This document shows positions 11,047 to 32,040 of a DNA stretch of 64,000 bases, one piece after another. A program made the translations under genes and the position numbers. The stretch is taken from NCBI GenBank assembly GCA_903882665.1, contig CAIRXW010000043.1, positions 62,001 through 126,000 on the forward strand, in the 5' to 3' direction. The first letter of the stretch is position 1, and each line of letters opens with the position of its first letter. The notes under the pieces were generated by a model that worked only from the letters and a program-made list of their open reading frames with translations, searched no databases and was not told the DNA's origin. The DNA comes from an uncultured Chlorobiaceae bacterium. GTDB lineage: Bacteria > Bacteroidota > Chlorobiia > Chlorobiales > Chlorobiaceae.

Positions 11047-11173
11047 GGCTGTATCCGGTTCATAATCAACAAAAACAGGGAAAAAACGTTTTGCCAGCAT
11101 TGATCGGCAACACAGCGAATTTACTAAAGCAAAATATAACAATTTTTATGCCGGAAACACTCATCGCGGTGGC

Positions 11174-11271
11174 GTTACAGGCAAGCAGAACAAAGAGGTG
11201 CACCCATTTGAGCAGCCGAATAATCTTGAGCTGCAGCATGTTACAGGCAAGCAGAACAAAGAGGTGCACCC
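11174..11271. repeat. Direct repeat pair (32 bp, 66-bp offset)
   Basis: An exact 32-bp sequence, beginning GTTACAGGCAAGC and ending GAGGTGCACCC, occurs at 11174-11205 and 11240-11271 with 34 bp between. The 66-bp offset equals the main period of the neighbouring CRISPR array, but the repeat sequence is unrelated to the array's repeat. No gene is called in 11047-11480. The plus strand has an open frame of about 90 codons across this repeat without an ATG, so a coding relic is the main alternative. Confidence 0.8.
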
Positions 11272-11364
11272 TGTGAATGCACAGGAACGGCAACAAGCTA
11301 TAGGCAAAATCGTTGCCGGGGCATGGACCGAAAGTTCCTAAAGTGCAAGGAGTTCCATGCTCCA

Positions 11365-11458
11365 GGGCTCCCTGAAGCTGCTGAGGTCAACACTTGTGCT
11401 TGTGCGTCGGGATCGCCCTTGATTTCGTCGGGCTCCCTGAAGCTGCTGAGGTCAACAC
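11365..11458. repeat. Direct repeat pair (29 bp, 65-bp offset)
   Basis: A second exact pair, 29 bp beginning GGGCTCCCTGAAG and ending GAGGTCAACAC, lies at 11365-11393 and 11430-11458 with 36 bp between. It ends 22 bp before the first CRISPR repeat. Its sequence is unrelated to the array's repeat and to the pair at 11174-11271, but the repeat-and-gap geometry is again CRISPR-like. Confidence 0.8.
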
Positions 11459-11480
11459 CGGCTTTCAGCGCTTTTGCCAT

Positions 11481-14400
11481 GTTTCAATTCCATATTGGTG
11501 CAATTAGAAGAAGTACTCACCCGCTGGAACTTTCGCGACGTCTTGGGTTTCAATTCCATATTGGTGCAATTAGAAGTACCTATCCGGATCGAGTCGTATC
11601 CAAAGCAGCCTTGTTTCAATTCCATATTGGTGCAATTAGAAGGGGCGAAAAAGAACGTGCGGTACAGGTGAAAGCGGCGTTTCAATTCCATATTGGTGCA
11701 ATTAGAAGCGGCAGTATCATCAGCTTCCTCCTCGATGTCAACTGGTTTCAATTCCATATTGGTGCAATTAGAAGTTTCCAAGCTTACGTCACTAAATCAG
11801 GACTTGCAATGTTTCAATTCCATATTGGTGCAATTAGAAGTGTTGAGTGGTTAAAGCGGTTCTGCTTGCTTTATGGGTTTCAATTCCATATTGGTGCAAT
11901 TAGAAGAGACGAGTATGGCACTTGTGGGAAATATTCAGATTGGTTTCAATTCCATATTGGTGCAATTAGAAGGTCTTCGATTTTCCTACTGTTGATCATC
12001 CTGTTCCTGTTTCAATTCCATATTGGTGCAATTAGAAGCAGCGAATGATTCGCGACATCTTCAGGACGATGATGTTTCAATTCCATATTGGTGCAATTAG
12101 AAGGCGGTCTCAGGCAGTTAATTCGCCGGAGCTGACTTCGTTTCAATTCCATATTGGTGCAATTAGAAGCGATACACGCGCAGCATCGCAGGCATCTTTT
12201 TTGAGGTTTCAATTCCATATTGGTGCAATTAGAAGTGTGATGTCTCTCGTGTCCTACTTGCTCACTATTGTGTTTCAATTCCATATTGGTGCAATTAGAA
12301 GGGGCGTGGCCTTTATCAGCGCATTGAGCGATATACGTTTCAATTCCATATTGGTGCAATTAGAAGTTACAGATATTATGGCGCAAGAGCAGAACAATAA
12401 CGGTTTCAATTCCATATTGGTGCAATTAGAAGCCGGAAACTACAGCGTCGCATTGGTCGAGTTGCCTGAGTTTCAATTCCATATTGGTGCAATTAGAAGA
12501 CAGAAAGGATTGAATCAGGCAAACTGATAGCTGACGTTTCAATTCCATATTGGTGCAATTAGAAGGCCGCCAAGCGCCGCAGTGGCCGGAGCTCCTGCCC
12601 TGTTTCAATTCCATATTGGTGCAATTAGAAGCTACCGGCTTGCTGTCCACGAACTTGATATAATAGAGTTTCAATTCCATATTGGTGCAATTAGAAGGAG
12701 CAGAGTTCTTTCTCGCTGATGACCACCAGAAAGTTTCAATTCCATATTGGTGCAATTAGAAGCAGCGACTCCCGGTATCATAAGAGCGCTTTTTACTCTG
12801 TTTCAATTCCATATTGGTGCAATTAGAAGGTTTTATCGCTGGTGGTTGCAGCATGGCGATACTGAGTTTCAATTCCATATTGGTGCAATTAGAAGTAACC
12901 ATGGCTATGGTTGAGACGCTCAAGAGGCGCTGTTTCAATTCCATATTGGTGCAATTAGAAGAACAACTACAAAAAGATTCTGAAGACAGCGTACAGAGTT
13001 TCAATTCCATATTGGTGCAATTAGAAGAAGCCACCTGAAACACTGTACACCCTTATTTGTTTACGTTTCAATTCCATATTGGTGCAATTAGAAGCGGATT
13101 GACCTACACAGAGGCGGGCGCTGTTTTGTGTTTCAATTCCATATTGGTGCAATTAGAAGTTTCCGGATGGCATGGGACGTATTCGCTGCTCACTCGTTTC
13201 AATTCCATATTGGTGCAATTAGAAGCTCCGCAGTCTGCTGGTTGGCGGTAATTCGAATAAGTTTCAATTCCATATTGGTGCAATTAGAAGTTAATCTCAA
13301 CAAGTCTACGACCCGCTTCCTTAAAGGTTTCAATTCCATATTGGTGCAATTAGAAGTGCTATCACTGACAAAAATACACGCCCCGATCTTTAGTTTCAAT
13401 TCCATATTGGTGCAATTAGAAGTTCAGCAGAGGCACTCCGGCGGAGGTACGTAGAAGGTGTTTCAATTCCATATTGGTGCAATTAGAAGAAGGCGCACGT
13501 TAAAGGGGAGTTGGTGCGGTTACCCGTTTCAATTCCATATTGGTGCAATTAGAAGAAGACGGCGAAGTATGCCCGCAAGGCGGTTACCGCGTTTCAATTC
13601 CATATTGGTGCAATTAGAAGTAAGCTCTTACGATACCGTGACGCAAGACAGTTTGTCGTTTCAATTCCATATTGGTGCAATTAGAAGCCGCCGCAGCAGC
13701 GGAAACAATGCTCGCGTCACTAGTTTCAATTCCATATTGGTGCAATTAGAAGTCGCCATCCAGCTACCAAAAGCCGCCAGACCACCAAGTTTCAATTCCA
13801 TATTGGTGCAATTAGAAGGCAGGACAAAAGAAAGGGAGAGGTTTTTATCATGAAGTTTCAATTCCATATTGGTGCAATTAGAAGCGCACATGGAGAGGAA
13901 GACTCTGCTAGACGGAAGTGGTTTCAATTCCATATTGGTGCAATTAGAAGTATCGACGAGAGCAGGACATTTATAGCTTTTTTATGTTTCAATTCCATAT
14001 TGGTGCAATTAGAAGGCTTGCTCATGCAAGATATTGCGCGATTTGAAACGTGTTTCAATTCCATATTGGTGCAATTAGAAGTGGAAGTAAATCAAGGCCT
14101 CTAAGTATTGAGTGGGTTGTTTCAATTCCATATTGGTGCAATTAGAAGCTCTTTTTGAGTTGAGCAACACCCTTTGCTTGGGCAGTTTCAATTCCATATT
14201 GGTGCAATTAGAAGGTGCAGAAAAACTCTACAGTCTGGGCGTGATATCGTGTTTCAATTCCATATTGGTGCAATTAGAAGATAACAAACATTCGGCGATG
14301 ACGGGTGTGAGGTATTGTTTCAATTCCATATTGGTGCAATTAGAAGGTAGATGGTAGCGTAGCGACGTTTTCCAGATCGTTGGAGTTTCAATTCCATATT

Positions 14401-17400
14401 GGTGCAATTAGAAGAGAGGCTGAACGCGACAACGTCTACGTCACTATGCCGTTTCAATTCCATATTGGTGCAATTAGAAGGCTGAGCGCCCTCCGCTACA
14501 TGGGCTACCAGCAGACGTTTCAATTCCATATTGGTGCAATTAGAAGGGAGGCGTTCACGCTTCCCGAGGGACAGGCTCAAGTGTTTCAATTCCATATTGG
14601 TGCAATTAGAAGCTGAAAAAACCGGATGCTGATTTTTTAAGTTATTATCGTTTCAATTCCATATTGGTGCAATTAGAAGACCGGGATGCGCTTTTCTGAC
14701 ATAGAGGTGCTGAAAGTTTCAATTCCATATTGGTGCAATTAGAAGTAAGGGAGGTTTACGATGGAAGATCAATATGTCATGTGTTTCAATTCCATATTGG
14801 TGCAATTAGAAGTATTTGTCAGAATCTTTTTGATTGTATGCGAGTAGGGTTTCAATTCCATATTGGTGCAATTAGAAGCATGCTATGCGGATTACTCGGG
14901 GAGAACTGGACACGGTTTCAATTCCATATTGGTGCAATTAGAAGGTCGCATTGATTGAGAGCGGCGGCCTGGCTGAATAGTTTCAATTCCATATTGGTGC
15001 AATTAGAAGACCCGGGCTTTTCCCCTGCCTTCTGTGCCATTGAAGTTTCAATTCCATATTGGTGCAATTAGAAGCTGGTGGCATCGGCAGAGTGGCGGCA
15101 GTGCCTCGCAGTTTCAATTCCATATTGGTGCAATTAGAAGTTGGCATAAGCCACAGCCTCTTGTTTGTAAATCAGTTTCAATTCCATATTGGTGCAATTA
15201 GAAGTTGCAGATATGGGCACCATTCACCCCATGATTTGAAAGTTTCAATTCCATATTGGTGCAATTAGAAGAATCACGAAGCGTTTTTATCGCTAAGCGA
15301 GTACGGGGTTTCAATTCCATATTGGTGCAATTAGAAGCAGAATACAACGCAAAGAAAGAGGTTGAACGGATTGGTTTCAATTCCATATTGGTGCAATTAG
15401 AAGGTTCATAAAACCATACCGTTGTATCGCCACTTCGGAGTTTCAATTCCATATTGGTGCAATTAGAAGTTGCCCGCCAGCTTTATGTCGATAGCTCCCG
15501 GCAGTGTTTCAATTCCATATTGGTGCAATTAGAAGTAACGCGTATATCGGAACCGGTTATGCAACTGAGGTGTTTCAATTCCATATTGGTGCAATTAGAA
15601 GGGGCGGAAACCGGGCTCTGTTCGAAGCGTTTGGCCTGTTTCAATTCCATATTGGTGCAATTAGAAGTGAAGAGTATGCAGAGCAGGTTTGCAATGCTAC
15701 CCCGTTTCAATTCCATATTGGTGCAATTAGAAGAAATTGATTTTATCAGGAATAAAAAAGCCTACCAGTGTTTCAATTCCATATTGGTGCAATTAGAAGA
15801 GCGTAAAACTGAAAGCAACTCATTAGCTAATCCATGTTTCAATTCCATATTGGTGCAATTAGAAGGTCAAAGAAAATAACTAAACGGATAATCATTTACA
15901 CGTTTCAATTCCATATTGGTGCAATTAGAAGAGCGCAGAAAAGGGCGGGAGAGGGCTGCAAAACGAGTTTCAATTCCATATTGGTGCAATTAGAAGCAAG
16001 GTTGGCACACTCAAGGTTGGCACCATTAAAGTGTTTCAATTCCATATTGGTGCAATTAGAAGTATCAAGGCTTGGCAGGTTTTTTATCAGTCTGATGAGT
16101 TTCAATTCCATATTGGTGCAATTAGAAGAAAAGTAAGTACGTCAGAAAAAAACTCACATTCTTTGTTTCAATTCCATATTGGTGCAATTAGAAGCCACTA
16201 CCCGCAATTACCGGTTTAGCTGAAAGATATGTTTCAATTCCATATTGGTGCAATTAGAAGTTGGAGTTCGGCAAGAGTTCCGGCGCGACGGGATTGTTTC
16301 AATTCCATATTGGTGCAATTAGAAGGTACCGCTCGATAAAGGATTTTGAAATATTGGAATAGTTTCAATTCCATATTGGTGCAATTAGAAGAGGCTTTTC
16401 TGTTGCTGCAATGGGACGAACTACCCCGTTTCAATTCCATATTGGTGCAATTAGAAGGAAGGTCATACCTGGCTTACTTTTACCATCTATGTAGTTTCAA
16501 TTCCATATTGGTGCAATTAGAAGTCAAAAAAGATGCCTGTGATGCTGCGCGTATCTCACGTTTCAATTCCATATTGGTGCAATTAGAAGCGCTACCAGGC
16601 CATTGTTGCGGCCCAGGTTCCCAAGTTTCAATTCCATATTGGTGCAATTAGAAGTCTATTCCGGGTCTGATAGGCAATATGTAACCTCAGGTTTCAATTC
16701 CATATTGGTGCAATTAGAAGGTCCCTATACTGCGGTGCCTTAATCTTCCGCTCAAAGTTTCAATTCCATATTGGTGCAATTAGAAGAATCGCCCGCCCAC
16801 TCAAGGCCGCAAGCTCGGCCAAGTTTCAATTCCATATTGGTGCAATTAGAAGAATCAATTTGATGTGAGTGAGGTTGAGGTTTGTGTAGTTTCAATTCCA
16901 TATTGGTGCAATTAGAAGCATGGGTGATCTCTTTCATGAGAGTGTTCCTGATGCAGTTTCAATTCCATATTGGTGCAATTAGAAGAAACCAAAGGTGTCC
17001 ACAAAACCTGATTTCAGTGAAGTTTCAATTCCATATTGGTGCAATTAGAAGCCGTGCGGCAGGGCTCTTAACCACCTTCTTCACCGTAGTTTCAATTCCA
17101 TATTGGTGCAATTAGAAGGGGACTTTTGCAAGCGGGAGTACATCAGGAAGATCGGTTTCAATTCCATATTGGTGCAATTAGAAGTCTCTTTTTATTTTTT
17201 TTTTGTTGCGGCGGCGGAGCGTTTCAATTCCATATTGGTGCAATCAGAAGGGGGATTTCACCCCTGCTTTTTTTTTGTGTTGTTTTCGTTTCAATTCCAT
17301 ATTGGTGCAATTAGAAGAATCATCGTATCGTAAAGGTTTTGTCCACCTGCTTGGTTTCAATTCCATATTGGTGCAATTAGAAGAATCCATCCTGAATGGG

Positions 17401-20400
17401 AATTTAAGCCCGGTTACTCGTTTCAATTCCATATTGGTGCAATTAGAAGCTCGGCAAACCTGCCACAGTTGACCTTTGAGGTTTAGTTTCAATTCCATAT
17501 TGGTGCAATTAGAAGCATCCAACACCGTCACCTTGATCGTCGCGTTTGATGTTTCAATTCCATATTGGTGCAATTAGAAGGTGGTCAACCTTGCGGGGGG
17601 TAGTGAGTATCGGCAGTTTCAATTCCATATTGGTGCAATTAGAAGTGATGTATAAGAATGTTTCGAGATTGATCGGTACATGTTTCAATTCCATATTGGT
17701 GCAATTAGAAGGCTGATTTTCACAATTCAACTTGGCACGGGTAGCTTGTTTCAATTCCATATTGGTGCAATTAGAAGTATGATCTTGAGCCGCACAGCGT
17801 TTATTTCGCCGTTGGTTTCAATTCCATATTGGTGCAATTAGAAGCCGGACGGTACGGTGAGTGGTCAGGCAGGGGATGAAGTTTCAATTCCATATTGGTG
17901 CAATTAGAAGTTGAAGCTGCCAAAAGTAAACCGGTTTTGTTTTATTGTTTCAATTCCATATTGGTGCAATTAGAAGCAATTACATCTTTGCTGGTTGAGG
18001 AAGGCGAGAGAAGTTTCAATTCCATATTGGTGCAATTAGAAGGCGTTCCGTCCTTGAAGCTTTCTTATGTGCTTACCCGGTTTCAATTCCATATTGGTGC
18101 AATTAGAAGCCGGAAGCTCAATTTCCGGTGAGGCTGGCGACAATATGTTTCAATTCCATATTGGTGCAATTAGAAGCTGTGAGATATCGACAGCTACAGG
18201 CAATGCGGATAGCGTTTCAATTCCATATTGGTGCAATTAGAAGTCAAGATGCTCTCTATGCTCAAGGCCGGACAATTCCGTTTCAATTCCATATTGGTGC
18301 AATTAGAAGATCTGGTTGCCATCTGGTTGAACACTCGTTGAACGCGTTTCAATTCCATATTGGTGCAATTAGAAGCTGTTGCTGTAATGTTGCCGATCAC
18401 TTCAAGAGTGTTTCAATTCCATATTGGTGCAATTAGAAGGCGCAACAACAGCAAGGCTATCAACGCAATGGCGGGTTTCAATTCCATATTGGTGCAATTA
18501 GAAGCTGCAAAAAAGCCACGGATTATTTTTGTGTGCTCCATGTTTCAATTCCATATTGGTGCAATTAGAAGTGGCTTATCAATGTCATTGCAAGATGGCT
18601 ATGAGATGGTTTCAATTCCATATTGGTGCAATTAGAAGTATACAAACACATGCAACAAAAAGATTTATTTCTGTGTTTCAATTCCATATTGGTGCAATTA
18701 GAAGAATAATCTCTGCCGTCAGGGCAGCAACAGCCTCATCAGTTTCAATTCCATATTGGTGCAATTAGAAGGTCGTCCAGCACGAAGCCAGCTACAAGAA
18801 CCCCTAGTTTCAATTCCATATTGGTGCAATTAGAAGTCTTGTCGTTTGCAACGATGTGCGAAACAACAGGAATGGTTTCAATTCCATATTGGTGCAATTA
18901 GAAGCAGGTACCACCCTTCAGTATAAAGGTTCTTGTCGATGTTTCAATTCCATATTGGTGCAATTAGAAGCTCCCGGATTAACACTGACAATAGATGAAA
19001 TAGGAAGTTTCAATTCCATATTGGTGCAATTAGAAGAATATTTTGATCTGTAGCCCTTCCGTTTTCGCGCCTGTTTCAATTCCATATTGGTGCAATTAGA
19101 AGCCTCCGCCATCTGCATGATTTCAATGTCACCCCACTGTTTCAATTCCATATTGGTGCAATTAGAAGAGGAATTGGAAGACGTTTTGAAGAAAATCAGA
19201 ATCCGTTTCAATTCCATATTGGTGCAATTAGAAGTGGCAACGACTGCCGGAATAGTAATCGCAGGCGATGGTTTCAATTCCATATTGGTGCAATTAGAAG
19301 ACGACACAGCGACAGCTTAACGCGCAGCTCAAAGCCGTTTCAATTCCATATTGGTGCAATTAGAAGCCAACGGATGCGCAGGGTCGAGAAATCAATAACC
19401 TGTTTCAATTCCATATTGGTGCAATTAGAAGGTGGCGCTTGCCGATTGAGGACACAAAATTAACGAGTTTCAATTCCATATTGGTGCAATTAGAAGACCG
19501 AAACATTACGAAGTGGTCAAGTACAGTGATTGGTTTCAATTCCATATTGGTGCAATTAGAAGATACCGATTCGGCGGGAAGCCCTGCAAGATCTCCTTGT
19601 TTCAATTCCATATTGGTGCAATTAGAAGCGTTGACCGTAGACTGGAGACTGCTTTCGCTAAAGTGTTTCAATTCCATATTGGTGCAATTAGAAGCTTGGA
19701 GGGTGGAACACTGATAACCTCATGATTCCAGGTTTCAATTCCATAGTGGTGCAATTAGAAGAGTGTACTGGATCAAGAGGAAATCAATGAACTGATGGTT
19801 TCAATTCCATATTGGTGCAATTAGAAGTCAACTTTCGCCGTTGCTTCCGCCACGGTCGGTAGAGTTTCAATTCCATATTGGTGCAATTAGAAGATCATGT
19901 TACGCTTCTTTTAAAAATGACAATAGCGCGTTTCAATTCCATATTGGTGCAATTAGAAGGCAGCAAGCTTGGGAGTATGCGACAAGTTTTTGCAGGTTTC
20001 AATTCCATATTGGTGCAATTAGAAGCCATTTCAACCGCAATACCATGCATCTCTGCTACTGGTTTCAATTCCATATTGGTGCAATTAGAAGGTGGCCCGC
20101 ATTGCAGGCCGCGACTCGGGGGGCACGTTTCAATTCCATATTGGTGCAATTAGAAGGGGATTGCTCCCCTGCTTTTTTTTTGTGTTGTTTACGTTTCAAT
20201 TCCATATTGGTGCAATTAGAAGCTTGCTCCGCGAGATAGCAAATCGCTCATCTGCCCAGTTTCAATTCCATATTGGTGCAATTAGAAGTGAACCACATAT
20301 CCAATTCACCCCGGGTAATCCGCAGTTTCAATTCCATATTGGTGCAATTAGAAGTTCCGAAATGCTCACAGACCGTTGGTAGCTTATAATTGTTTCAATT

Positions 20401-23400
20401 CCATATTGGTGCAATTAGAAGCATCTGCTGGACCTTGTAATATGCGGCGGAGAGACGTTTCAATTCCATATTGGTGCAATTAGAAGGCTGAGTGTAAAAA
20501 AGTGGCCACAGGCCCAGCTCAAGTTTCAATTCCATATTGGTGCAATTAGAAGCAGTTGCCCGCATGGCAGGCCGCGACTCGGGGGGCACGTTTCAATTCC
20601 ATATTGGTGCAATTAGAAGAGTGGCTGCGCGGATCCATGCGGAATGCTTTGATCTGTTTCAATTCCATATTGGTGCAATTAGAAGGATGCTGCGCGTATC
20701 TCACGGGGGGCTTACTACGTTGTTTCAATTCCATATTGGTGCAATTAGAAGGATGCTGCACGCATAAGCCGGGGGGCTTACTACGTCGTTTCAATTCCAT
20801 ATTGGTGCAATTAGAAGTGGCGACCCTCAATAAGAGTGTCACTGATATTCTAGCTAGTTTCAATTCCATATTGGTGCAATTAGAAGACGTTTTTGCCACC
20901 AGGGAGCTGCTACAGATGATTTGTTTCAATTCCATATTGGTGCAATTAGAAGGGAGAACCTTACACGGAAGATGTACAATCAGCAGTAGTTTCAATTCCA
21001 TATTGGTGCAATTAGAAGGTGGGAGTTCCATTTCATTTCAAGCAATGGGGTGAAGTTTCAATTCCATATTGGTGCAATTAGAAGCTGTTAATTAAAGCTT
21101 ATTGCAAGTTGGCGGCGGGTTTCAATTCTATATTGGTGCAATTAGAAGCCCGCCGCCTCTGCGCGAAAAGCCGCACAAAAAGCGTTTCAATTCCATATTG
21201 GCGCAATTAGAAGTCAATCGAGATCAATTATCGTGGGCTGAAGATATCGTTTCAATTCCATATTGGTGCAATTAGAAGTCGGCAAACTCATGGCAAAGGA
21301 TGAAATCCGGAACAGTTTCAATTCCATATTGGTGCAATTAGAAGTATGCCGCCAAGCGGTGGGACTGCGCGGGCAATGGCGTTTCAATTCCATATTGGTG
21401 CAATTAGAAGAAGAACCGCAAAACTGTCATAAAATCTGGTATTGACGTTTCAATTCCATATTGGTGCAATTAGAAGTGCCTGGTTAAAACAGGGCAAAAA
21501 AGATGTTGATGAGTTTCAATTCCATATTGGTGCAATTAGAAGTATACGCGATTCTTCTTCAGACAACTCTTTTTCAAGTTTCAATTCCATATTGGTGCAA
21601 TTAGAAGAGATGATGATAAAATTGGTGATGAGATGGTAGTGATGTTTCAATTCCATATTGGTGCAATTAGAAGTCCCGGCCTGCTTAGCTCCCCCTCGGG
21701 CGTAAAGAGGTTTCAATTCCATATTGGTGCAATTAGAAGAAGGTAAAGATGAAGATTGCGCTTTGTGCGAAACCATGTTTCAATTCCATATTGGTGCAAT
21801 TAGAAGTATACGCGATTCTTCATCAGACAACTCTTTTTCAAGTTTCAATTCCATATTGGTGCAATTAGAAGGCGTGACCGGCGCGACATCACGCAGAATT
21901 ATGCGGAGTTTCAATTCCATATTGGTGCAATTAGAAGGATGATGATCTGCATATCAACGAGCGGTCTGCCAGGGTTTCAATTCCATATTGGTGCAATTAG
22001 AAGGGCCGGTGTCAAGATTGCTTTTACAGCGTCAGCGAGGTTTCAATTCCATATTGGTGCAATTAGAAGGGAGCTGCAGCCATACTATGCAGAAGCAAAG
22101 ATGGAGTTTCAATTCCATATTGGTGCAATTAGAAGCACCAGTCACAAACGATGATCCTCCAACGCAAACAGGTTTCAATTCCATATTGGTGCAATTAGAA
22201 GTGCAACAATCCGGTGCCACTCTGTCTTGTCAACCTTCGTTTCAATTCCATATTGGTGCAATTAGAAGCCGGATTGCGCGGGATATTGAGCGGGCGAAAG
22301 AAAGTTTCAATTCCATATTGGTGCAATTAGAAGCCGACATTTATCACCGCTCCGCAATAACTACAAATGGTTTCAATTCCATATTGGTGCAATTAGAAGG
22401 TCATACACTAAAGCTAACTGTGCGTCGTGGACTGTGTTTCAATTCCATATTGGTGCAATTAGAAGTTACACTTATTTGCGGGAGCAGGGGGAGGTGTGCT
22501 GTTTCAATTCCATATTGGTGCAATTAGAAGGATTTGTTCAGGATTAATCCTTTGCAGGAATCGGAGTTTCAATTCCATATTGGTGCAATTAGAAGCAGAG
22601 CAGGATATTTTGAGAGTGCTTCAAGAAAAGGTTTCAATTCCATATTGGTGCAATTAGAAGAACGGGCGAAGGGGAGGGGGAGGGAGGAATTTTTTGTTTC
22701 AATTCCATATTGGTGCAATTAGAAGAACCCATTCGATGCGCAAAGCGTCAGGTGTTTACGCGTTTCAATTCCATATTGGTGCAATTAGAAGCTGAAGCCG
22801 CACAGAAGCCGCGCGTCATGAACCCGGTTTCAATTCCATATTGGTGCAATTAGAAGGACTTTGCGGTCTCATCTCTCATCATGCTTAAAGCGGTTTCAAT
22901 TCCATATTGGTGCAATTAGAAGGGGAATGGCGCCGGTGGGCTCCTGAACTGATCAAAAGTTTCAATTCCATATTGGTGCAATTAGAAGAACGCACAAGAA
23001 CACCTTGACCATACCATAAAGCCAGTTTCAATTCCATATTGGTGCAATTAGAAGATACGGTTGAACTCGATGCCGACGTTACCACACCTGTTTCAATTCC
23101 ATATTGGTGCAATTAGAAGTATCCTGAAACATCTGCACTTGTTCAGCGGTAATTTGTTTCAATTCCATATTGGTGCAATTAGAAGGAAGTTCGACAGCTC
23201 GATTCACCTATGGTTCGATTAGTTTCAATTCCATATTGGTGCAATTAGAAGAGCGCATTGTAAGCGTCGTAACCAAGCGCCCTAACCGTTTCAATTCCAT
23301 ATTGGTGCAATTAGAAGGAAGATCACGCGTGACGACATTGACGATGAGGACGAGTTTCAATTCCATATTGGTGCAATTAGAAGTCAAGTTTCGTGCGTTT

Positions 23401-24308
23401 GATGATGGCAAGATGATCAGTTTCAATTCCATATTGGTGTAATTAGAAGTCGTTGCTTGCTTCAGCCCTTGCAATTATCAATGTGTTTCAATTCCATATT
23501 GGTGCAATTAGAAGAAGAAAACCTGCCGATGTTGGCGCAGGCCATAGCTGAGTTTCAATTCCATATTGGTGCAATTAGAAGACGGAGATCAGCAGACGGT
23601 AGATAGTTCAGTATATCGTTTCAATTCCATATTGGTGCAATTAGAAGCGGGGCTTTCGGCTCTTGTTTCAACCAGAATATTCCGTTTCAATTCCATATTG
23701 GTGCAATTAGAAGCAAGAACGACAGAGGACAACAAAGGCAATATCATCAGTTTCAATTCCATATTGGTGCAATTAGAAGTCGCAAATAACCTGGGCAAAC
23801 TTATCGGAGGGAAGACGTTTCAATTCCATATTGGTGCAATTAGAAGACGGACGGTCACTATCTGACCACCTCAAGATTATCAGTTTCAATTCCATATTGG
23901 TGCAATTAGAAGACAGTTGACCCCGTTGAGTACAGCTACAATAGCGACGTTTCAATTCCATATTGGTGCAATTAGAAGTACGCAGACCTCAAAACAGGCC
24001 TTGAATCACTTATCGTTTCAATTCCATATTGGTGCAATTAGAAGGTATGGTTTTGCGGTCGAATGGTGTTGTTAAGCGTAGTTTCAATTCCATATTGGTG
24101 CAATTAGAAGTCGAGCTTACAAACGGATACAGCAAAGCTCTTCATGTTTCAATTCCATATTGGTGCAATTAGAAGTTTATTAGTTCCTGCATTGCCGGTA
24201 GCTTCAGCGTCGTTTCAATTCCATATTGGTGCAATTAGAAGGAGAGAATTCACGGCTACCGAGATATTGCGCATCGTTGTTTCAATTCCATATTGGTGCA
24301 ATTAGAAG
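11481..24308 (-). CRISPR. CRISPR array, 195 repeats / 194 spacers
   Basis: A 30-bp repeat that begins GTTTCAATTCCATATTGG and ends GCAATTAGAAG (plus strand) recurs from 11481-11510 to 24279-24308. Walking every repeat start by hand gave 195 copies. Spacers are 34-39 bp, mostly 36. At least five repeats carry one substitution (17221, 19732, 21119, 21184, 23420); the rest look identical by eye. Reverse-complemented, the repeat ends ATTGAAAC, the typical 5' handle of type I-B crRNAs, so the array is probably transcribed on the minus strand from the leader at its right end. The cas genes lie immediately upstream in that direction. The many open frames inside the array are translations of the repeat and are not genes. 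Confidence 0.99.
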
Positions 24309-24539
24309 CCGCCTTGATTTCGGCTGGAAAGTCCTGATTTTGTTGAAGTCCAATTCATAAAATCACCTCACTTTGTCGTCGGGTGGTAATAACGGTAAAA
24401 AGCCGGAGCCTCGACGACTATCCTAATGTATTACATTTCTGTCAATTAGAAAACTGAAGGCACCTTCTTTTCTTGTTTTGTAGCTCCGAAGGTGACCATA
24501 GGAGCACACTGACGACATCCGCTACGAAATGCATGAGCG
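24309..24539 (-). promoter_or_regulatory. CRISPR leader with promoter candidate
   Basis: This 231-bp segment lies between the cas4 stop and the first-transcribed repeat. On the minus strand it contains TTGACA (24445-24440), a 17-bp gap and GATAGT (24422-24417), a good sigma-70-type promoter that would start the pre-crRNA about 100 nt before the first repeat. A 7-bp inverted repeat (GTCGTCG at 24375-24381, CGACGAC at 24412-24418) flanks the presumed start region. The 3' part is the expected site for spacer integration signals. A 64-codon frame (24446-24640) overlaps cas4 and is probably not a gene. Confidence 0.65.
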
Positions 24540-25040
24540 CTAAGCCCAGCAAAATTCATAATATGCGCAAGTTTTACAGAATTTCTTGTTAATCCGTTCC
24601 GGTGGTTTCTCTTGCTTGATAAGGGCGGCCATGTCACCAAAAATTTCCTGGATTTTTAGCTCATCTTCTGCAGTCAGTACAACATCAAGCGTTTTTTTCA
24701 GCTTTGGATAATCAAGCCTACCAGTGACATCTTCTATCCCAAAGCTTTTCAAATAATATAGGTAATATTTTAACTGCCAGAGGTGAGCCTCCTCCATTTT
24801 ATCAGATTTTTTCACCTCATGGACCACCTTGTGCTGCTTGTCATAAAAATCGAGCACAGCACCATCGCTTAACTGAATTTCGTGACGTTCATCGGGATAG
24901 GCGGTTTCACTGATAAACTTGCCCTCTTCCACCGGACTGAAATCACTTTCGAACTGTAATTGCCGGTCAAACAACCATAATTTCCGATGGCAGATAAAAT
25001 AGTAGCTGATTTTTGTGCCGTTGACCTTTGGATGAAGCAT
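24540..25040 (-). CDS. cas4: CRISPR-associated exonuclease Cas4
   Basis: A 166-residue RecB-like nuclease. It has the four cysteines for the [4Fe-4S] cluster (C17 and C155, C158, C164 in FCKTCAYYEFCW) and the nuclease residues D64, E75 and K77 (VVHEVKK), followed by the Q89-x-x-Y92 motif. Cas4 works with Cas1-Cas2 to trim pre-spacers and set PAM and orientation. It lies 6 bp after cas2 and is the last gene of the operon, next to the leader. In many type I-B loci cas4 precedes cas1, so this order is a variant. Confidence 0.95.
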   Translation of the reverse strand: MLHPKVNGTKISYYFICHRKLWLFDRQLQFESDFSPVEEGKFISETAYPDERHEIQLSDGAVLDFYDKQHKVVHEVKKSDKMEEAHLWQLKYYLYYLKSFGIEDVTGRLDYPKLKKTLDVVLTAEDELKIQEIFGDMAALIKQEKPPERINKKFCKTCAYYEFCWA

Positions 25041-25046
25041 GGCGTA

Positions 25047-25307
25047 TCAAATAAAATTGGAGGCTGGCCGCTTTTCCATACCAAGAATCTCTTTCTTCAT
25101 ATACTTTCCATTCAACTCAAAAAAGATAACTGAATCCTTGTCATCATGGCAGAGGTGTGAGGCCTCATACTTCAGCTTTTGATATGATGCGGGAGTCATC
25201 TCGCCCTCAAAAACGGAATTCTGGATGTGGTGCATATACTTGCGAAATATTTTCAGCATTTTTCCCACACGCTTTTCCTCCACATCGTACACAGCAATAT
25301 AGTACAT
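25047..25307 (-). CDS. cas2: CRISPR-associated protein Cas2
   Basis: An 86-residue ferredoxin-fold protein. It starts with the family strand MYYIAVYDV, with the conserved Asp at residue 8, and continues KMLKIFRKYMHHIQNSVFEG. Cas2 dimers bridge two Cas1 dimers in the spacer-integration complex. It lies 27 bp after cas1 and 6 bp before cas4, in the adaptation module of the operon. Confidence 0.96.
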   Translation of the reverse strand: MYYIAVYDVEEKRVGKMLKIFRKYMHHIQNSVFEGEMTPASYQKLKYEASHLCHDDKDSVIFFELNGKYMKKEILGMEKRPASNFI

Positions 25308-25334: not shown

Positions 25335-26489
25335 CTACCACCAGCTTCGGAAAGCATGGAATGCATCTTCGCCGATGAGATGTTTGATGAGCTTATAGCA
25401 TTCAAGACGAATGAGGCGACGATATGAAACATCCCTGCCAAGACCCCGATGCTTGATGGTTGTTCTCATGCGCTCTTCAAACTCCTTGACCACAATCTTC
25501 CTGCCAGCATCGTTCAGGTGGCAAAAGTTCAGAGCTGTGGTAAAATGTTTCGCCTGAATTTCACGGGTGTTAACCAGTTTGAAAATCATCCGGTCAATAA
25601 ACATTGGCTTGAAAATTTCAGCCATATCGAGAGCCAGAGAAAACCTGCGTTCCGACGGTTCATGCAAAAAAGAGATTGTCGGGTTAAGCTGTGTCCGGTA
25701 GATTTCGGTCAGGCAAGCTGAATACATCAGGCTGTTTCCGAATGACACCAGCGCATTGACGGCATTATCCGGCGGACGTTTCACCCGTTCCGAGAATGAA
25801 AAAGCCGGGTCAGCCGAGCGAAGCAGATGCTGCCAAGATTGATAATAAAACCTGCGAATATTCCCTTCAATGCCCATCAGGCAAGGAATATCCGATGCCG
25901 TGGCAATCGCACCCGAAAGCGACTCAATCTGCGCTATGGTATGAAAGAGCATGTCAACACTCTCCTGCCCCAGCGCAGCCTGCCGTGAATCAGCGGTGTA
26001 GTATTTCAAATTTCGCGCAATATTTGCCGCCGCAGCCTCAATAAACTCGCGAGCAAGTTCCATCCGTTTTTTCAGTGAGCTGTAATGCTTCACCTGATGC
26101 ACAACCAGATACCCCGACAACAAGTATTCACGCGGGTAGTAGGAACCTGAATAAAACCCGTAATAGTTGAACAGGTGCATAGGAATGTGGTACTTGGTCA
26201 AGAAGTTCAGAAACTTCGTGTTGAAGTTCACCTCCCCGAACACAAAAAACGAATCAATGTTATTGATCGGGATCACTCGCCTTCCACCGGTATTAAGCTT
26301 GCCATCGTTCACAGGATTGAGCGAAAAGCTCTCCAGCTCATCCGACTCAAAATAGAGCAAAGGATCCGTTTCAATAGTCACCTCATCCTGCGTGACATAC
26401 GGCACAAAACAAATGGTGTTCTCACGCCGCATAAGTACACCATTTGAGAAGATGTAAAACGGCTGTTTTGTAGGAATTGATTGGGACAT
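25335..26489 (-). CDS. cas1: CRISPR-associated integrase Cas1
   Basis: A 384-residue Cas1, somewhat longer than the usual ~330 because of an N-terminal extension of about 15 residues and an insert near residues 55-70. The metal-binding catalytic residues are recognisable: E208 in LMGIEGNIRRFYY, H276 in SFLHEPSERRFSLALD and E291 in AEIFKP. With Cas2 it inserts new spacers at the leader end of the array. It starts 3 bp after cas3 ends. Type I-B-like affiliation is inferred from its neighbours. Confidence 0.97.
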   Translation of the reverse strand: MSQSIPTKQPFYIFSNGVLMRRENTICFVPYVTQDEVTIETDPLLYFESDELESFSLNPVNDGKLNTGGRRVIPINNIDSFFVFGEVNFNTKFLNFLTKYHIPMHLFNYYGFYSGSYYPREYLLSGYLVVHQVKHYSSLKKRMELAREFIEAAAANIARNLKYYTADSRQAALGQESVDMLFHTIAQIESLSGAIATASDIPCLMGIEGNIRRFYYQSWQHLLRSADPAFSFSERVKRPPDNAVNALVSFGNSLMYSACLTEIYRTQLNPTISFLHEPSERRFSLALDMAEIFKPMFIDRMIFKLVNTREIQAKHFTTALNFCHLNDAGRKIVVKEFEERMRTTIKHRGLGRDVSYRRLIRLECYKLIKHLIGEDAFHAFRSWW

Positions 26490-26492
26490 TTA

Positions 26493-28712
26493 CTAACAAT
26501 AAAGATTGTCGAAATTATAATCAATGTTCAAACCTTCTTCAAAAGTGTAAGCAGATTCTAATGCGACCATAATATTCCTTTTCTCATCGCCTATGACTAT
26601 TTCGGTTGGACTTATGCAGCCGTTTGAAATACCCCGCTGAGCCAAATAAATAGGAATTGCTATACCACACTCATTCTTAAATTCTTGAAAATCCATATAG
26701 TTTTTAAAATAACCCTCAGGGTGTTTTATAAATACCTTTACTTGAGCAGGAATATTGCGGCTTTTCCATTGCATGGTATCTTCTTCGTCTTCTTTCATTT
26801 CATCAGCAGGAAGAAATAACCAATTGGCAATAAATGACTCTTCCAAACATCTTGCATTGTTTATTGCATTACTTGGAGATTCTTGCTGCTTGTCATAGAC
26901 TTGGTTCACAAGATTTACAAAATCGGCTGCCGAATAGTCTTTTAGCTCAAGTAAATCTTTTGTTTTCATGAATGCCGGATTTGCTTCCCAGCCAGTTTTC
27001 CGCATGTATGAGCCGTAAGGGGCTGGGTAATCTATTTCATTTCTAGTGGGCAAAATTACATGAAGCAAACCAACTTGTTTTCCAAATCGCGATAACCGCC
27101 CGACACGTTGAACCAGTCTATCTATCGGACACAATTCTGAAATCATATAATCAGCACTAATATTCACACTAATTTCTCCAATTTGTGTCAAAATTGCAAT
27201 CCCGTTTGCTTTATTTTCTTTCCAGGCAGAGGCTCCGAGCATGTCCAGCAATAGCTCTTCTTTTTTCTTCTTATCGGCTTCAATAAACCGACTGTGATAC
27301 AACACAGGCTCAACATTTTGCTTCTTAAATCGTTGATATAACTGCATTGCACTTGCAACCGTGTTAGCATAAATAATTGTCGGTTGTGTTTTGCTTGCTA
27401 TCAATAGTTCATCAATTTCATCCAAGTCCGAGTAAGATTGAATTGATTTCACTTCACAACGGGTGCGGGATAAATCCGAAACATCTTCTTGTATTTTCAA
27501 ATTATGATAACCGGCTTTTTCATATATTTTTAGCGATGAATCGGGGAGCGAGGCACTCATAAGCATAACGGGAACTGCCAAAACCCTTGTTAAGAAGAGT
27601 AATTTTACAATATTTTCCTGTGTAAAAGCATCATAAAAATCAGCTTCATCAATAACCAAACAGCTATGTGCAAGGTTGAACACAATGCCGTGATGGTCTT
27701 CCCGCGAAAGCGTTAGGGAAGCTAAAAGATGGTCTATTGTGCAAACCGTTACGGGTGATTCAAGCAAACGTGCAAACTCGTGAATCATCCGCTCTTTATG
27801 TTCATTTTCTTTTGACAGCTTAGCGTTCTCACTGTGGTGACTAAACCATGAGCTTGAGTGATATAGCCCTGTTTCCGAAACGCACTCATTAACATTCAAA
27901 GCCAATGCATTTGACGTAAAACGAGTCGGCATTGCAATCACTAAACGATCTGCTCGTTTTGCATCAATTTGTTTTTTTGCCCAAAGCAATGCCGCATCAG
28001 TTTTGCCCGCACCGGTTGGAGCGCGAAGTAAAAGCAGCGGTTCAGTTGAAAAATCTGCCACTAATTGCTGAACCGGTCGCATTTCCCATGCTTCGGGGAA
28101 TTCATAGCGAAATGGCTGAAACTCAGGTACAAAACGCTCCCTCTCGTCAATATTTTCCTGAATACTCGCCCGATGGTCTGCAAGTTGCAAATATGAGCGA
28201 ACGCCTGAAAACTTATAATGCCATTGAAGTGCGTTTTCAAAAGCGTCTTTCGCGATAGGGTCAAACGCATTATTTGAAAGACGTTTGAACGAATCCCAAA
28301 AGACTTGTGCACCTTTCAGTTCTGCATCCAACCAACGTTTTTCATGCCCGCTTGACAATTTTTTATGGTGTGCGGCAATTGCAATTTTGACAGGTTCCGA
28401 AAGCTGTTTTTCTTGGAGCATAATCAGTGAAGCAATTTCATGCCGAATACCGACTTTCATTAAATTGCTACCATATTTTTCCCCTGCTAAAAATTTTTGA
28501 TAGTCTTTTTCGCAAGCAGCCTGCCATTTTTTGTGAGCTTTTCCTTCATCGTGAAACAGTGCAGCAATTTCAACTTCTTTTTGGAAGTGATTTCCTGTAA
28601 AGCGTTCATATTTTTCAGCAACAAAGGGATGATTGGAAACGCAAATTTGCGCTTCCTGCTCAACGTCTTTAGAATGTTTTTCGAACGTTATACCTGTAGG
28701 TTTTGCTAACAT
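26493..28712 (-). CDS. cas3: CRISPR-associated nuclease-helicase Cas3
   Basis: A 739-residue fusion of HD nuclease and SF2 helicase. The HD motif is LFHDEGKAH (H54, D55), with a second histidine pair in AIAAHHKKLS. Walker A is RAPTGAGKT (about 231-238), the DEAD box is LVIDEADF (355-358), and the helicase C-terminal part has DRLVQRVGRLSRFG. Cas3 is recruited by Cascade and degrades target DNA. It lies between cas7 and cas1. The base composition appears more AT-rich than in the housekeeping genes, in keeping with the rest of the effector module. Confidence 0.96.
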   Translation of the reverse strand: MLAKPTGITFEKHSKDVEQEAQICVSNHPFVAEKYERFTGNHFQKEVEIAALFHDEGKAHKKWQAACEKDYQKFLAGEKYGSNLMKVGIRHEIASLIMLQEKQLSEPVKIAIAAHHKKLSSGHEKRWLDAELKGAQVFWDSFKRLSNNAFDPIAKDAFENALQWHYKFSGVRSYLQLADHRASIQENIDERERFVPEFQPFRYEFPEAWEMRPVQQLVADFSTEPLLLLRAPTGAGKTDAALLWAKKQIDAKRADRLVIAMPTRFTSNALALNVNECVSETGLYHSSSWFSHHSENAKLSKENEHKERMIHEFARLLESPVTVCTIDHLLASLTLSREDHHGIVFNLAHSCLVIDEADFYDAFTQENIVKLLFLTRVLAVPVMLMSASLPDSSLKIYEKAGYHNLKIQEDVSDLSRTRCEVKSIQSYSDLDEIDELLIASKTQPTIIYANTVASAMQLYQRFKKQNVEPVLYHSRFIEADKKKKEELLLDMLGASAWKENKANGIAILTQIGEISVNISADYMISELCPIDRLVQRVGRLSRFGKQVGLLHVILPTRNEIDYPAPYGSYMRKTGWEANPAFMKTKDLLELKDYSAADFVNLVNQVYDKQQESPSNAINNARCLEESFIANWLFLPADEMKEDEEDTMQWKSRNIPAQVKVFIKHPEGYFKNYMDFQEFKNECGIAIPIYLAQRGISNGCISPTEIVIGDEKRNIMVALESAYTFEEGLNIDYNFDNLYC

Positions 28713-28726: not shown

Positions 28727-29734
28727 TTATTCTTGTTGATTAAAAGGTATCTCTGTTTGACTGATGGCAATATCAGTACTTACTTGATTTTTCAAGCCAA
28801 AATTTGGAAGAAATGCCTCTTCAAAAGTTTTGATTATTGAATCTTTCTCACACGGATCATAAAGATTATTCTTTTCAAGAAACTCGAAGGCGTTCTTATA
28901 TGCCTTTCCGACGCTTACGTCGCCTACCTTGTCATTTCCTAAAAAATAAGTAGCTTCACGCTCATCCAATTCAGCAAGAATGTTAATTCTTTCCTTTTCA
29001 TCGGCATCAAAATAGCGCGATGCCTTACGACTCAGTTTGGAATCAAAAACGATTAAAACAGTTTGCGGTTCACCAGTAGTTGCGTTTCGTGCTTGTTGGG
29101 CATAATCAGTTAATGATCGTGTAGCTTCTAAATACATTTTAGCTCTACGTTTGCGTTCTGTTTCTGCAACATGCTTCACAAATAGTGTTTTAAGATGCAC
29201 GCCCTTATTCCCTGATTTTTCACCGTACTCGAACTTTTTTGAAATACTCAATGAAGAAAGATCAAGATGAAAATTCATGAGCATCATATCGGACTGGCTG
29301 AATTCGCGAGTTGCTAACGCTTGGTCTCTGTCGCCTTCGCTATCCATTTTTAAGCGAATTAACAAATCACGTCCAATATCACTTTGTTCAAGAGCTACGG
29401 CAGGAGTGACACTCATCGGAGAAATTCTACGGCCAGAATAATTACCTGCCGATGGGTGCATAAAACCTCCCAAATCTGCACGCAAATCGGTTTCAATTGC
29501 ATTACTAATCCCATCGCCATTTGAAACATGGGTTGCTCCTCTGTTGGTATCTTCTATATTTAAGCGTTCCATAGCACTGAAAAAGGCATGACGCTGCATT
29601 TGCCCTGAGATATATACACGCTCATCTGGACGGCGTTTTATGGATGAAGCGTTGCCCAATAGTTTTTCTCCTCCATTTGCAATGTGATTTGTCATTGGTG
29701 ACAGTAGCGTAACCAAAATTCCTTTGATAACCAT
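28727..29734 (-). CDS. cas7: Type I-B-like Cas7 (Csp1/DevR family) backbone subunit
   Basis: A 335-residue protein of the Cas7/DevR family. Recognisable segments are LSPMTNHIANGGEKLLGN, the arginine-rich SSIKRRPDERVYISGQMQRH and a glycine-rich MHPSAGNYSGRRISPMSV. Cas7 forms the helical backbone that holds the crRNA spacer in Cascade. The layout resembles the Csp1 branch of the PGING variant; that assignment is from memory. It lies 34 bp after cas8 and 14 bp before cas3. Confidence 0.85.
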   Translation of the reverse strand: MVIKGILVTLLSPMTNHIANGGEKLLGNASSIKRRPDERVYISGQMQRHAFFSAMERLNIEDTNRGATHVSNGDGISNAIETDLRADLGGFMHPSAGNYSGRRISPMSVTPAVALEQSDIGRDLLIRLKMDSEGDRDQALATREFSQSDMMLMNFHLDLSSLSISKKFEYGEKSGNKGVHLKTLFVKHVAETERKRRAKMYLEATRSLTDYAQQARNATTGEPQTVLIVFDSKLSRKASRYFDADEKERINILAELDEREATYFLGNDKVGDVSVGKAYKNAFEFLEKNNLYDPCEKDSIIKTFEEAFLPNFGLKNQVSTDIAISQTEIPFNQQE

Positions 29735-29768: not shown

Positions 29769-31331
29769 TTAATCTATCTCAGATTTCGAATCATCAAGCA
29801 CTAATTCAGATAATTGCGGCATTTCGTACGGTTCGCGTTCTTCGCTTGTACTACGCAAGCGAGAGTAAGCGACAATTAAGTTTTTTGATTCCTCAAGCGT
29901 TAGTTTTCCACTGGCAACTGCATCAAAAAATAGTGTAGCTGAATTTGGTGCGTCACTTTGAGAAAGTCTTCCTGCACGAGTTACAACCTGAGCTAAAAGC
30001 GCATCGTGAGACTTGGCAGCAAATACAGTGCTTTCCATTTCCGCCAAAAACTTAGACTTTAGCTTGCGAATCGCTTCCTTATCATTTTTTTTATCCCGAT
30101 TCTCCGCCTCTTTACGCGCCGCCCAATAAGCTGTACTGTTAAGCCATTGCCCTAAAGCCCGTGCAGATTGCACGATAGTTTCATCTTTTTGCATAGCATT
30201 GATAAAATAGGTGTTAAATAATTTTTCAAGTATCTGGGGGTATTCGGCACGAATTGAAAGGAAATCCTGAAAGCTTTTTTGTTCAAAAAGCTGAAAAAAT
30301 CGTGATGCAAAAAGAAAAAAAAGTTGGTATTTTGTGCTTGACAAGTCTCTTTCTGAAAGAATTTTAGAATATTGAATAGCGTCAATAATGTCGCTAAGGA
30401 AATCATTTTTTGCTAACTCAACAATCCAGTGGCCAAAGGAAACCGATTTAGCATTTCCATATTCAACAATGTAAATCGGACGCGATTTCAAGCTATCAAG
30501 AACAAACTTGCCTTCGTCCCAATAATTTGCTTCTTTTGCCCAACGGCCAATTGCGCCTAATAAACCGACACTGCCTAAAGCAGATTGCCGTGGCGCATAA
30601 GGAAAGTTTCCACTGCAAATTTTCGGCCGGTTAAAGCTATAAACTGTTTCAGTCTTCTTGTTAACTGTTTTTACCTTACCAAATAAAAGCTTTTTGGTTT
30701 CTGACTCAGACATTTTTCGGAATAGGTGTATAAACCTTTTTAAATCGTTTATTTCCAAGTCAGGAATAATACAGGCAGAGTCAGTTTCTCCACTCATTAA
30801 TTTCGGTAACAACGCAGGCTTATCCGGTGTAAAGGTGGTAATCGCACAGCTTGCCACTTCAATTAATGATGATTTGGAATTTGATTGGGATTGTTTGCCA
30901 TTATTAATTTTACCGGAAAGCGGCATAAGCGACATCGTAGCTTCTTTACTTGCAAAAAGTTTTCCACTCTTTAATTCTTTTTGCGTATCAGAAATCGCTT
31001 TCCAAGCATTTCCTGCACCTTTATTTGAGGTAATGACTGTCGGAGCAAGAAAATACGAAACCTCAGCCGAGACATCTTTTCCTACTTGAACAATAGACTC
31101 CCCTTTTTTACCTATTCTTTTAGGATTTTTATTAAAAAAGTCCTTACTCAAATATCGAAATTCAACTAAATCATTTTCGATATTAAATGGCAATGGTTCA
31201 AGCCGAAAATGATTTTGTCCGTTTTCCAATTCCGAAATAAGCATATCAGGCGTGACTTCTTCAGGAGAATCAAGCTTATTATTCAGCATTGTAAGGGCAA
31301 GACCGTAACGCCCATAAAAATGATTAACCAT
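29769..31331 (-). CDS. Putative Cascade large subunit (Cas8/Csp2-like)
   Basis: A 520-residue protein with no enzymatic motif that I recognise. It sits where the large subunit belongs, between cas5 and cas7, and its length and position fit Csp2 of the PGING-type (type I-B variant) systems. Cas8 proteins recognise the PAM and help recruit Cas3. The C-terminal third is rich in helices and lysine (about residues 400-500), which could act as the small-subunit (Cas11) module; that is inference. Its start overlaps the end of cas5 by 8 bp. Confidence 0.72.
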   Translation of the reverse strand: MVNHFYGRYGLALTMLNNKLDSPEEVTPDMLISELENGQNHFRLEPLPFNIENDLVEFRYLSKDFFNKNPKRIGKKGESIVQVGKDVSAEVSYFLAPTVITSNKGAGNAWKAISDTQKELKSGKLFASKEATMSLMPLSGKINNGKQSQSNSKSSLIEVASCAITTFTPDKPALLPKLMSGETDSACIIPDLEINDLKRFIHLFRKMSESETKKLLFGKVKTVNKKTETVYSFNRPKICSGNFPYAPRQSALGSVGLLGAIGRWAKEANYWDEGKFVLDSLKSRPIYIVEYGNAKSVSFGHWIVELAKNDFLSDIIDAIQYSKILSERDLSSTKYQLFFLFASRFFQLFEQKSFQDFLSIRAEYPQILEKLFNTYFINAMQKDETIVQSARALGQWLNSTAYWAARKEAENRDKKNDKEAIRKLKSKFLAEMESTVFAAKSHDALLAQVVTRAGRLSQSDAPNSATLFFDAVASGKLTLEESKNLIVAYSRLRSTSEEREPYEMPQLSELVLDDSKSEID

Positions 31332-32040
31332 TTGTTAAGCCCTCCCGGAAACTAATATCTACCCAACCTTCGCTTGTACCCAAATAACCAATATTCATAT
31401 CAAAACAAGCAGTTTGAAGTAAACTCAAAAGCTGACGATTTATGTTAATTCTAAACATATAGTTTCCTTTTGCTATGATAAATTCCCGTTTTGGAACTGA
31501 CCGATAGTAAAGCGGAAATAGCGCACGATTATCCATGAAGAATTTTCCAAAATCTTTTTCAGTGAGTTCTTTTGATTTCATTTTGGATTTAATAATGTTT
31601 CTTTCATTTTCAAGTCGCCAATCGTAATTAATTGCACCATCCGCATGGCGTTGATCGCCTCCTATGAGATGCTGTGACCACAAGTCTTCATAATATTGCA
31701 ATATCGGAACAAAAGTCGGTGATACAAGTTGAAAGTAATAGCCAACCAGCGATTGATAGCCAGCTTCCGACTCTTCTTTTTCAAGTTCTTGCTTAAAATT
31801 TTTTTTATGCCTTTTTTTCATCTCTTTGAAAATTTTTGCTCGATCCTCTTTAGAAAAATGCCAACCAAGTAGATTTTCAAAAAGACCTGAAAGCATAAAT
31901 TTTGTAGGAATACTTTCTGTTTTATAATAAGAACCGGGTAGATTATTGACCATTGAAAGTGGTGCAAGAGGCTGAATTTTCAGAATGGCAATTGCATCCA
32001 ACATGGGTTCTTCAAAAAGCAATGAAATATCTATTTCCAT
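31324..32040 (-). CDS. cas5: CRISPR-associated protein Cas5
   Basis: A 238-residue protein. The N-terminal part has the Cas5 pattern of a hydrophobic strand followed by APLSMVNNLPGSYYKTESIP and LSGLFENLLGWHF. The segment MFRININRQLLSLLQ lies in the C-terminal half. Cas5 caps the 5' handle of the crRNA in Cascade. It follows cas6 by 24 bp and overlaps the large-subunit gene. It is longer in the middle than compact Cas5 proteins because of a charged region (about 65-100). Confidence 0.82.
   Translation of the reverse strand: MEIDISLLFEEPMLDAIAILKIQPLAPLSMVNNLPGSYYKTESIPTKFMLSGLFENLLGWHFSKEDRAKIFKEMKKRHKKNFKQELEKEESEAGYQSLVGYYFQLVSPTFVPILQYYEDLWSQHLIGGDQRHADGAINYDWRLENERNIIKSKMKSKELTEKDFGKFFMDNRALFPLYYRSVPKREFIIAKGNYMFRININRQLLSLLQTACFDMNIGYLGTSEGWVDISFREGLTNG

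What the first reader, a model, noticed from the sequence alone, without database searches (positions are those of the whole stretch)
11481..24308. Very long single CRISPR array (195 repeats)
Counting each repeat start gave 195 copies of one 30-bp repeat over 12.8 kb with a mean period of 65.97 bp. Most arrays are far shorter. The high repeat uniformity indicates an array that is still growing or under strong homogenisation. It records about 194 past encounters with mobile DNA in one genome.
Basis: seen in the sequence. Interest (0 to 1): 0.75.

Follow-up and report, generated by a model that had tools for sequence, protein, structure and literature searches.

The report
Long CRISPR array with integration scars
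A green sulfur bacterium really does carry 195 copies of one CRISPR repeat in a single intact immune-memory array; the array is an unusually large member of an ordinary, known system, and beside its old end lie two small scars that look like misplaced memory insertions.

Summary
It is a canonical type I-B array of the csp/PGING variant, read on the minus strand. A leader and intact cas4-cas2-cas1-cas3-cas7-cas8-cas5-cas6 lie at 24309-32889. Spacers match Mu-like and other prophages of related Chlorobium genomes, next to a CCN PAM. The size is rare but not a record: 587 spacers are known (PMC7145573).

Two things were added. (1) The same repeat, leader, cas6 and cas1/2/4 sit beside non-homologous I-B effector cassettes in related genomes, with breaks at the cas1 start codon and the cas6 3' end. 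Such in-situ swapping is a known process (PMC12669027). (2) Within 310 bp of the trailer end lie two 65-66-bp units: 29- or 32-bp direct duplications around 36- or 34-bp inserts. Relatives keep unduplicated sites, and the half of the genome scanned holds no others. Off-target Cas1-Cas2 integration is the best reading, unproven. 'Homogenisation' and '194 encounters' are not supported.

The parts
11481..24308 (-). CRISPR array: 195 repeats of 30 bp, 194 spacers; read on the minus strand, leader end at 24308, trailer (oldest) end at 11481
   Evidence: orientation from the repeat's minus-strand 3' end ATTGAAAC, the adjacent leader and the cas operon on the minus strand
24309..24539 (-). leader, conserved with G014 and G097 (same genus)
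   Evidence: alignment of leaders; its last 16 nt GCCGAAATCAAGGCGG abut the first repeat
24540..25040 (-). cas4
   Evidence: TIGR00372, 81 bits, over cut-off
25047..25307 (-). cas2
   Evidence: TIGR01573, over cut-off
25335..26489 (-). cas1 (I-B); the only cas1 in the genome
   Evidence: TIGR03641, 437 bits; PF01867 search of own genome gives one match
26493..28712 (-). cas3 (helicase plus HD nuclease), gene of the exchangeable effector cassette next to cas1
   Evidence: TIGR01587 and TIGR01596 over cut-off
28727..29734 (-). cas7 (csp1)
   Evidence: TIGR03489, 452 bits, over cut-off
29769..31331 (-). cas8 (csp2-like)
   Evidence: TIGR03487, 387 bits, full length but below its cut-off of 461.75; PADLOC Cas8b, E 8.8e-122
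31324..32040 (-). cas5 (cas5p)
   Evidence: TIGR03488, 164 bits, over cut-off
32065..32889 (-). cas6, conserved side of the effector cassette
   Evidence: TIGR01877, 122 bits
26490..32084 (-). effector cassette that is replaced by non-homologous I-B effector cassettes in G014, G023 and G013
   Evidence: Nucleotide homology stops at 26489 (A of the cas1 ATG) and resumes at 32084-32099 (3' end of cas6) in three genomes
11365..11458 (.). presumed off-target spacer unit B: 29-bp direct duplication around a 36-bp insert (period 65), within a remnant of a YcaO gene
   Evidence: undivided homologous sites in G033 and G012
11174..11271 (.). presumed off-target spacer unit A: 32-bp direct duplication around a 34-bp insert (period 66)
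   Evidence: undivided orthologous sites in G034 and G026

Best explanation
The feature is the memory array of one complete, probably working type I-B (csp/PGING variant) CRISPR-Cas system. Cas4-Cas1-Cas2 cut CCN-flanked fragments of about 36 nt from Mu-like and other phages and insert them at the leader end near 24308, copying the first repeat each time (shown: leader, intact genes, PAM, foreign matches; inferred: activity). Cas6 cuts the long transcript, and the Cas5-Cas7-Cas8 complex with Cas3 destroys matching DNA (inferred from families). The effector part of the operon is an exchangeable cassette, while array, leader, cas6 and adaptation genes stay constant (shown by comparison). The two 65-66-bp units beside the trailer end are most likely off-target Cas1-Cas2 insertions: each duplicated about 30 bp of local DNA around one spacer-sized insert (structure and undivided sites shown; enzyme inferred, about 0.75).
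For: Array geometry. Cas families. One cas1 in the genome. Spacers hit phage DNA and controls do not: (three exact matches in one Mu-like prophage, L073; portal, major head protein and transposase genes identified there). PAM CCN: 14 of 20 distinct spacers against a background of 0.059, P = 1.7e-13; the arrays of G014 and G023, with other effectors, show CCA or CCG at all 7 of their hits. Cassette exchange: Cas1 95-97% and Cas6 90-93% identical across G000, G013, G014, G023, while Cas3 shares 24-33% and Cas5/7/8 align only over short scattered stretches; breaks at the cas1 ATG and cas6 3' end; the four cassettes belong to different I-B kinds. Off-target units: 29+36 and 32+34 bp; the collapsed sequence aligns end to end with undivided sites (unit A 102 bits in one piece against 65+52 in two); no other unit of that size in 1.37 Mb of the genome.
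Against: No source was found for either off-target insert, and the duplicated sequences do not resemble the CRISPR repeat (69% and 98% of random windows score as well). The undivided homologues of unit B are at other loci, not orthologous positions. The newest spacers have no close matches in the DNA searched, so present activity is not shown. The Cas8 match is below the csp2 cut-off.
Confidence: 0.85

Rival explanations
1. The count is inflated or the array is wrongly joined by the assembler.
For: The genome is a 57-contig draft, and arrays of relatives are broken at contig ends, for example in G097 and G026.
Against: All 194 spacers differ, so there is no exact unit longer than one repeat to collapse or expand; the array lies well inside a 151,654-bp contig; single relatives have 132 and 161 copies in one array.
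Confidence: 0.04
2. Repeat uniformity is kept by active homogenisation (gene conversion) rather than by copying at the leader end.
For: 190 of 195 repeats are identical; the same repeat is identical in other genomes.
Against: Five private variants persist without spreading, at positions 14, 48, 49, 70 and 108 from the leader; frequent recombination between repeats would be expected also to remove or duplicate spacers, and no exact spacer duplicate is seen. Leader-end copying alone explains the data.
Confidence: 0.07
3. The two trailer-side units are remnants of other CRISPR arrays or plain tandem duplications, not off-target insertions by Cas1-Cas2.
For: Their period (65-66 bp) equals that of the main array; the neighbourhood is gene debris (Rpn nuclease, NHLP-like peptide start, YcaO fragment), where rearrangements are common.
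Against: The two 'repeats' are unrelated to each other and to the array repeat, and exist as single native copies in relatives. A tandem duplication would repeat the insert or the flank, and it does not. The genome has one cas1 and no second cas locus was found.
Confidence: 0.2

Closest known systems
Type I-B CRISPR-Cas, PGING/csp variant (NCBIfam TIGR03489, TIGR03488, TIGR03487)
   Same: cas6-cas5p-csp2-csp1-cas3-cas1-cas2-cas4 order, 30-bp repeat ending ATTGAAAC, 36-nt spacers, leader next to cas4
   Different: Cas8 is full length but below the csp2 curated cut-off; the array is much longer than usual
Haliangium ochraceum array (587 spacers; PMC7145573, PMC8047081)
   Same: very long single array in a bacterium
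   Different: three times longer; other organism
[quoted passage not shown]
   Same: near-identical Cas1 next to unrelated effectors; criterion Cas1 >= 90%, effector < 50% identity met here
   Different: here a whole multi-gene I-B cassette is exchanged between cas6 and cas1, four kinds in one genus, with the repeat and PAM kept
Off-target spacer integration making new CRISPR-like loci (Nivala et al. 2018, known to me from memory and as cited in PMC9456107; text not held)
   Same: spacer-sized insert flanked by a duplicated target of repeat length, outside an array
   Different: two units side by side at the trailer end of a type I-B array; target sequences not repeat-like

Membership tests
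CRISPR array | Regular direct repeats separated by unique spacers of near-constant length | tested here: met
   195 repeats, 194 unique spacers of 34-39 nt
CRISPR array | Spacers match mobile DNA next to a PAM | tested here: met
   20 distinct spacers at up to 9 mismatches, controls 0; CCN P = 1.7e-13
Type I-B CRISPR-Cas, PGING/csp variant | Cas3 with helicase and HD parts | tested here: met
   TIGR01587 and TIGR01596 over cut-off
Type I-B CRISPR-Cas, PGING/csp variant | Csp1 (Cas7) and Cas5p over their curated cut-offs | tested here: met
   452 against 340.65 bits; 164 against 100 bits
Type I-B CRISPR-Cas, PGING/csp variant | Csp2 (Cas8) over its curated cut-off | tested here: inconclusive
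   Full-length match of 386.8 bits, cut-off 461.75; PADLOC Cas8b E 8.8e-122
Type I-B CRISPR-Cas, PGING/csp variant | I-B Cas1, Cas2, Cas4 and Cas6 | tested here: met
   TIGR03641, TIGR01573, TIGR00372, TIGR01877, all over cut-off
Type I-B CRISPR-Cas, PGING/csp variant | crRNA production and DNA interference | not testable with these tools
   needs RNA sequencing and plasmid or phage challenge
In-situ effector shuffling (criterion of PMC12669027) | Cas1 at least 90% identical while effectors are under 50% identical | tested here: met
   Cas1 95-97%; Cas3 24-33%, Cas8 and others without full-length similarity among G000, G013, G014, G023
Off-target Cas1-Cas2 integration (units A and B) | Target duplication of about repeat length around an insert of spacer length | tested here: met
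   32+34 and 29+36 bp against 30+36 in the array
Off-target Cas1-Cas2 integration (units A and B) | Undivided ancestral site | tested here: met
   Unit A: orthologous sites in G034 and G026; unit B: homologous YcaO genes in G033 and G012
Off-target Cas1-Cas2 integration (units A and B) | Insert derived from foreign DNA with a PAM | tested here: inconclusive
   No source found: insert B in phage records and (27-nt part) IMG/VR, both inserts in fetched loci
Off-target Cas1-Cas2 integration (units A and B) | Target resembles the native repeat | tested here: not met
   Similarity of the duplicated sequences to the repeat is not above random windows

The most novel reading that the evidence does not exclude
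Cas1-Cas2 of this I-B system does not insert off target at random but favours DNA beside the trailer end of its own array, so that new repeat-like units arise next to the old array; combined with free exchange of the effector cassette, the array-plus-adaptation unit is the stable core and everything else is replaceable.
Probability: 0.15. Interest if true: 0.65.

Novelty: new member of a known kind. Interest (0 to 1): 0.42.

Why it matters
A 194-spacer record with a readable PAM is a good handle on the little-known phages of green sulfur bacteria. The same repeat, leader, PAM and adaptation genes paired with four effector kinds in one genus form a natural experiment on which parts of a CRISPR system must match each other. 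If the two trailer-side units are off-target insertions, they are natural examples of how CRISPR-like loci could begin, with ancestral sites at hand.

Tried and rejected
Phage records (INPHARED): no spacer match beyond one weak hit to a Synechococcus phage at E = 0.6; no use.

IMG/VR pattern scans for a shared spacer site (back-translated, then DNA) gave nothing, nor did a 27-nt part of insert B.

The idea that the units at 11174 and 11365 are old arrays of another CRISPR system was dropped when single native copies were found in relatives.

The idea that the duplicated sequences resemble the canonical repeat was tested and rejected.

Csp2 is rare in the order (2 of 98 genomes), which first suggested that the relatives with this repeat had lost the effector; they turned out to hold other effectors.

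Self-targeting: no exact self match in about half of the genome; a few diverged matches (7-9 mismatches, two with CCA) lie in a phage-like region of the same contig, and two more at 9 mismatches lie on another contig, where the reversed control also gave one. The other half of the genome was not scanned.

Full report
Observation. The array is exactly as described: 195 copies of GTTTCAATTCCATATTGGTGCAATTAGAAG from 11481 to 24308, mean period 65.969 bp, 194 different spacers of 34-39 nt, 190 repeats identical and five with one private change. The whole genome (2,806,896 bases, 57 contigs) holds 195 copies, all in this array. The repeat's minus-strand form ends in ATTGAAAC and the cas genes lie on the minus strand to the right, so the array is read leftwards; 24308 is the leader (new) end and 11481 the trailer (old) end.

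What it is. Genes at 24540-32889, all on the minus strand, are cas4, cas2, cas1, cas3, csp1 (cas7), csp2-like (cas8), cas5p and cas6, a type I-B system of the PGING/csp variant. Csp2 is full length but below its curated cut-off; PADLOC calls it Cas8b. There is one cas1 in the genome.

Size in context. Typical bacterial arrays have fewer than 50 spacers and more than 100 is rare; the longest known has 587 (PMC8047081; PMC7145573). The same or nearly the same repeat occurs in related genomes: 132 copies in G014, 60 in G023, 45 in G097 (one base different) and about 257 in G038 in two arrays of 161 and 98. G038 has 3,293,456 bases, which from memory is the size of Chloroherpeton thalassium. Long arrays are therefore a habit of this system, and 195 is the longest single one found here.

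Targets and PAM. No phage in INPHARED matches convincingly, but related Chlorobium genomes do. Scanning 28 fetched stretches, 20 distinct spacers match at up to 9 mismatches; reversed and shuffled spacers match nowhere. Three match exactly and two more with 2 and 5 mismatches in one prophage of G012 that has a Mu-type portal, a major head protein, a terminase and a Mu-like transposase. The three bases before the protospacer are CCN for 14 of the 20 (background 0.059, P = 1.7e-13), mostly CCA. The same flank is seen for arrays of G014 (5 of 5) and G023 (2 of 2), which use other effectors. Several spacers are repeat captures of one site from related phages: 38/42, 57/64, 63/107 and the overlapping 55/118/184. 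Hence 194 spacers are not 194 separate encounters. In the window's own contig, about 17-19 kb past the window end, a phage-like region (RusA-like resolvase, replication loader, small terminase) holds diverged matches to spacers 110, 120 and 141, two with CCA.

Uniformity. Each new repeat is copied from the leader-end repeat, so identity is expected. The five variants are singletons at positions 14, 48, 49, 70 and 108 from the leader; none has spread and none lies in the oldest 87 repeats. This gives no sign of gene conversion. The leader is conserved with G014 and G097 and the adaptation genes are intact, so growth is plausible, not shown.

Exchangeable effector cassette. In G014, G023 and G013, Cas1 is 95-97% and Cas6 90-92% identical to the window's, but Cas3, Cas5, Cas7 and Cas8 are not close orthologues. 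DNA homology stops at 26489, the A of the cas1 start codon, and resumes at 32084-32099, the 3' end of cas6, in all three. The cassettes are csp1/csp2 (window and G097), cst1/cst2/cas5t (G014), csh2/cas5h with a Cas8b (G023) and another I-B set (G013). On the far side, homology ends at 33055-33066 in every genome, so the whole island also sits in different surroundings. The criterion of PMC12669027 for in-situ shuffling is met; the process is known, this example is clear.

Two units beside the trailer end. At 11174-11271 a 32-bp sequence is duplicated around a 34-bp insert (period 66); at 11365-11458 a 29-bp sequence is duplicated around a 36-bp insert (period 65). The two duplicated sequences are unrelated to each other and to the CRISPR repeat. 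Orthologous DNA of G034 and G026 has the first site once, without insert; YcaO genes of G033 and G012 have the second site once. Removing insert and one copy from the window restores an unbroken alignment. In 1.37 Mb of this genome (49%), no other direct repeat has such dimensions. A duplication of repeat length around a spacer-length insert is what Cas1-Cas2 leaves; I take off-target integration as the likely cause (about 0.75). Against it: neither insert has a known source and the targets are not repeat-like. Insert B shares 11 nt, CGAAATCAAGG, with the leader end, expected in 0.26% of random 36-mers; this is unexplained.

Verdict. Its added interest lies in the cassette exchange around a constant array and in the two scars.

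Noticed in passing
window 11272-11480: Debris of a modified-peptide gene cluster: a start that reads like an NHLP-type leader peptide (VNAQERQQAIGKIVAGAW) and a fragment of a YcaO gene, next to the array's trailer end; intact YcaO relatives exist in G033 and G012.
   Followed up: partly
window 11394-11429 and 24309-24324: The 36-bp insert of unit B contains CGAAATCAAGG, which is also part of the CRISPR leader next to the first repeat; chance about 0.3% per insert.
   Followed up: partly
L109 (contig C43, about 143-145 kb): Phage-like region in the window's own genome with diverged protospacers of spacers 110, 120 and 141, two keeping the CCA flank; possibly a prophage that escapes the array.
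   Followed up: partly
L021:6989-8933: Two open frames (384 and 279 aa) between cas6 and cst1 in G014 match no NCBIfam or PADLOC family.
   Followed up: no
window 10183-11142; L029: Rpn-family PD-(D/E)XK nuclease gene just beyond the trailer end; in G026 two tandem copies of its homologous region lie on the same contig as that genome's array.
   Followed up: partly
L030 and L031 (G038): Two distant long arrays (161 and 98 repeats) share two spacers and hold exact internal spacer duplicates; the adaptation genes with cas6 stand beside one array without an effector between cas6 and cas1.
   Followed up: no
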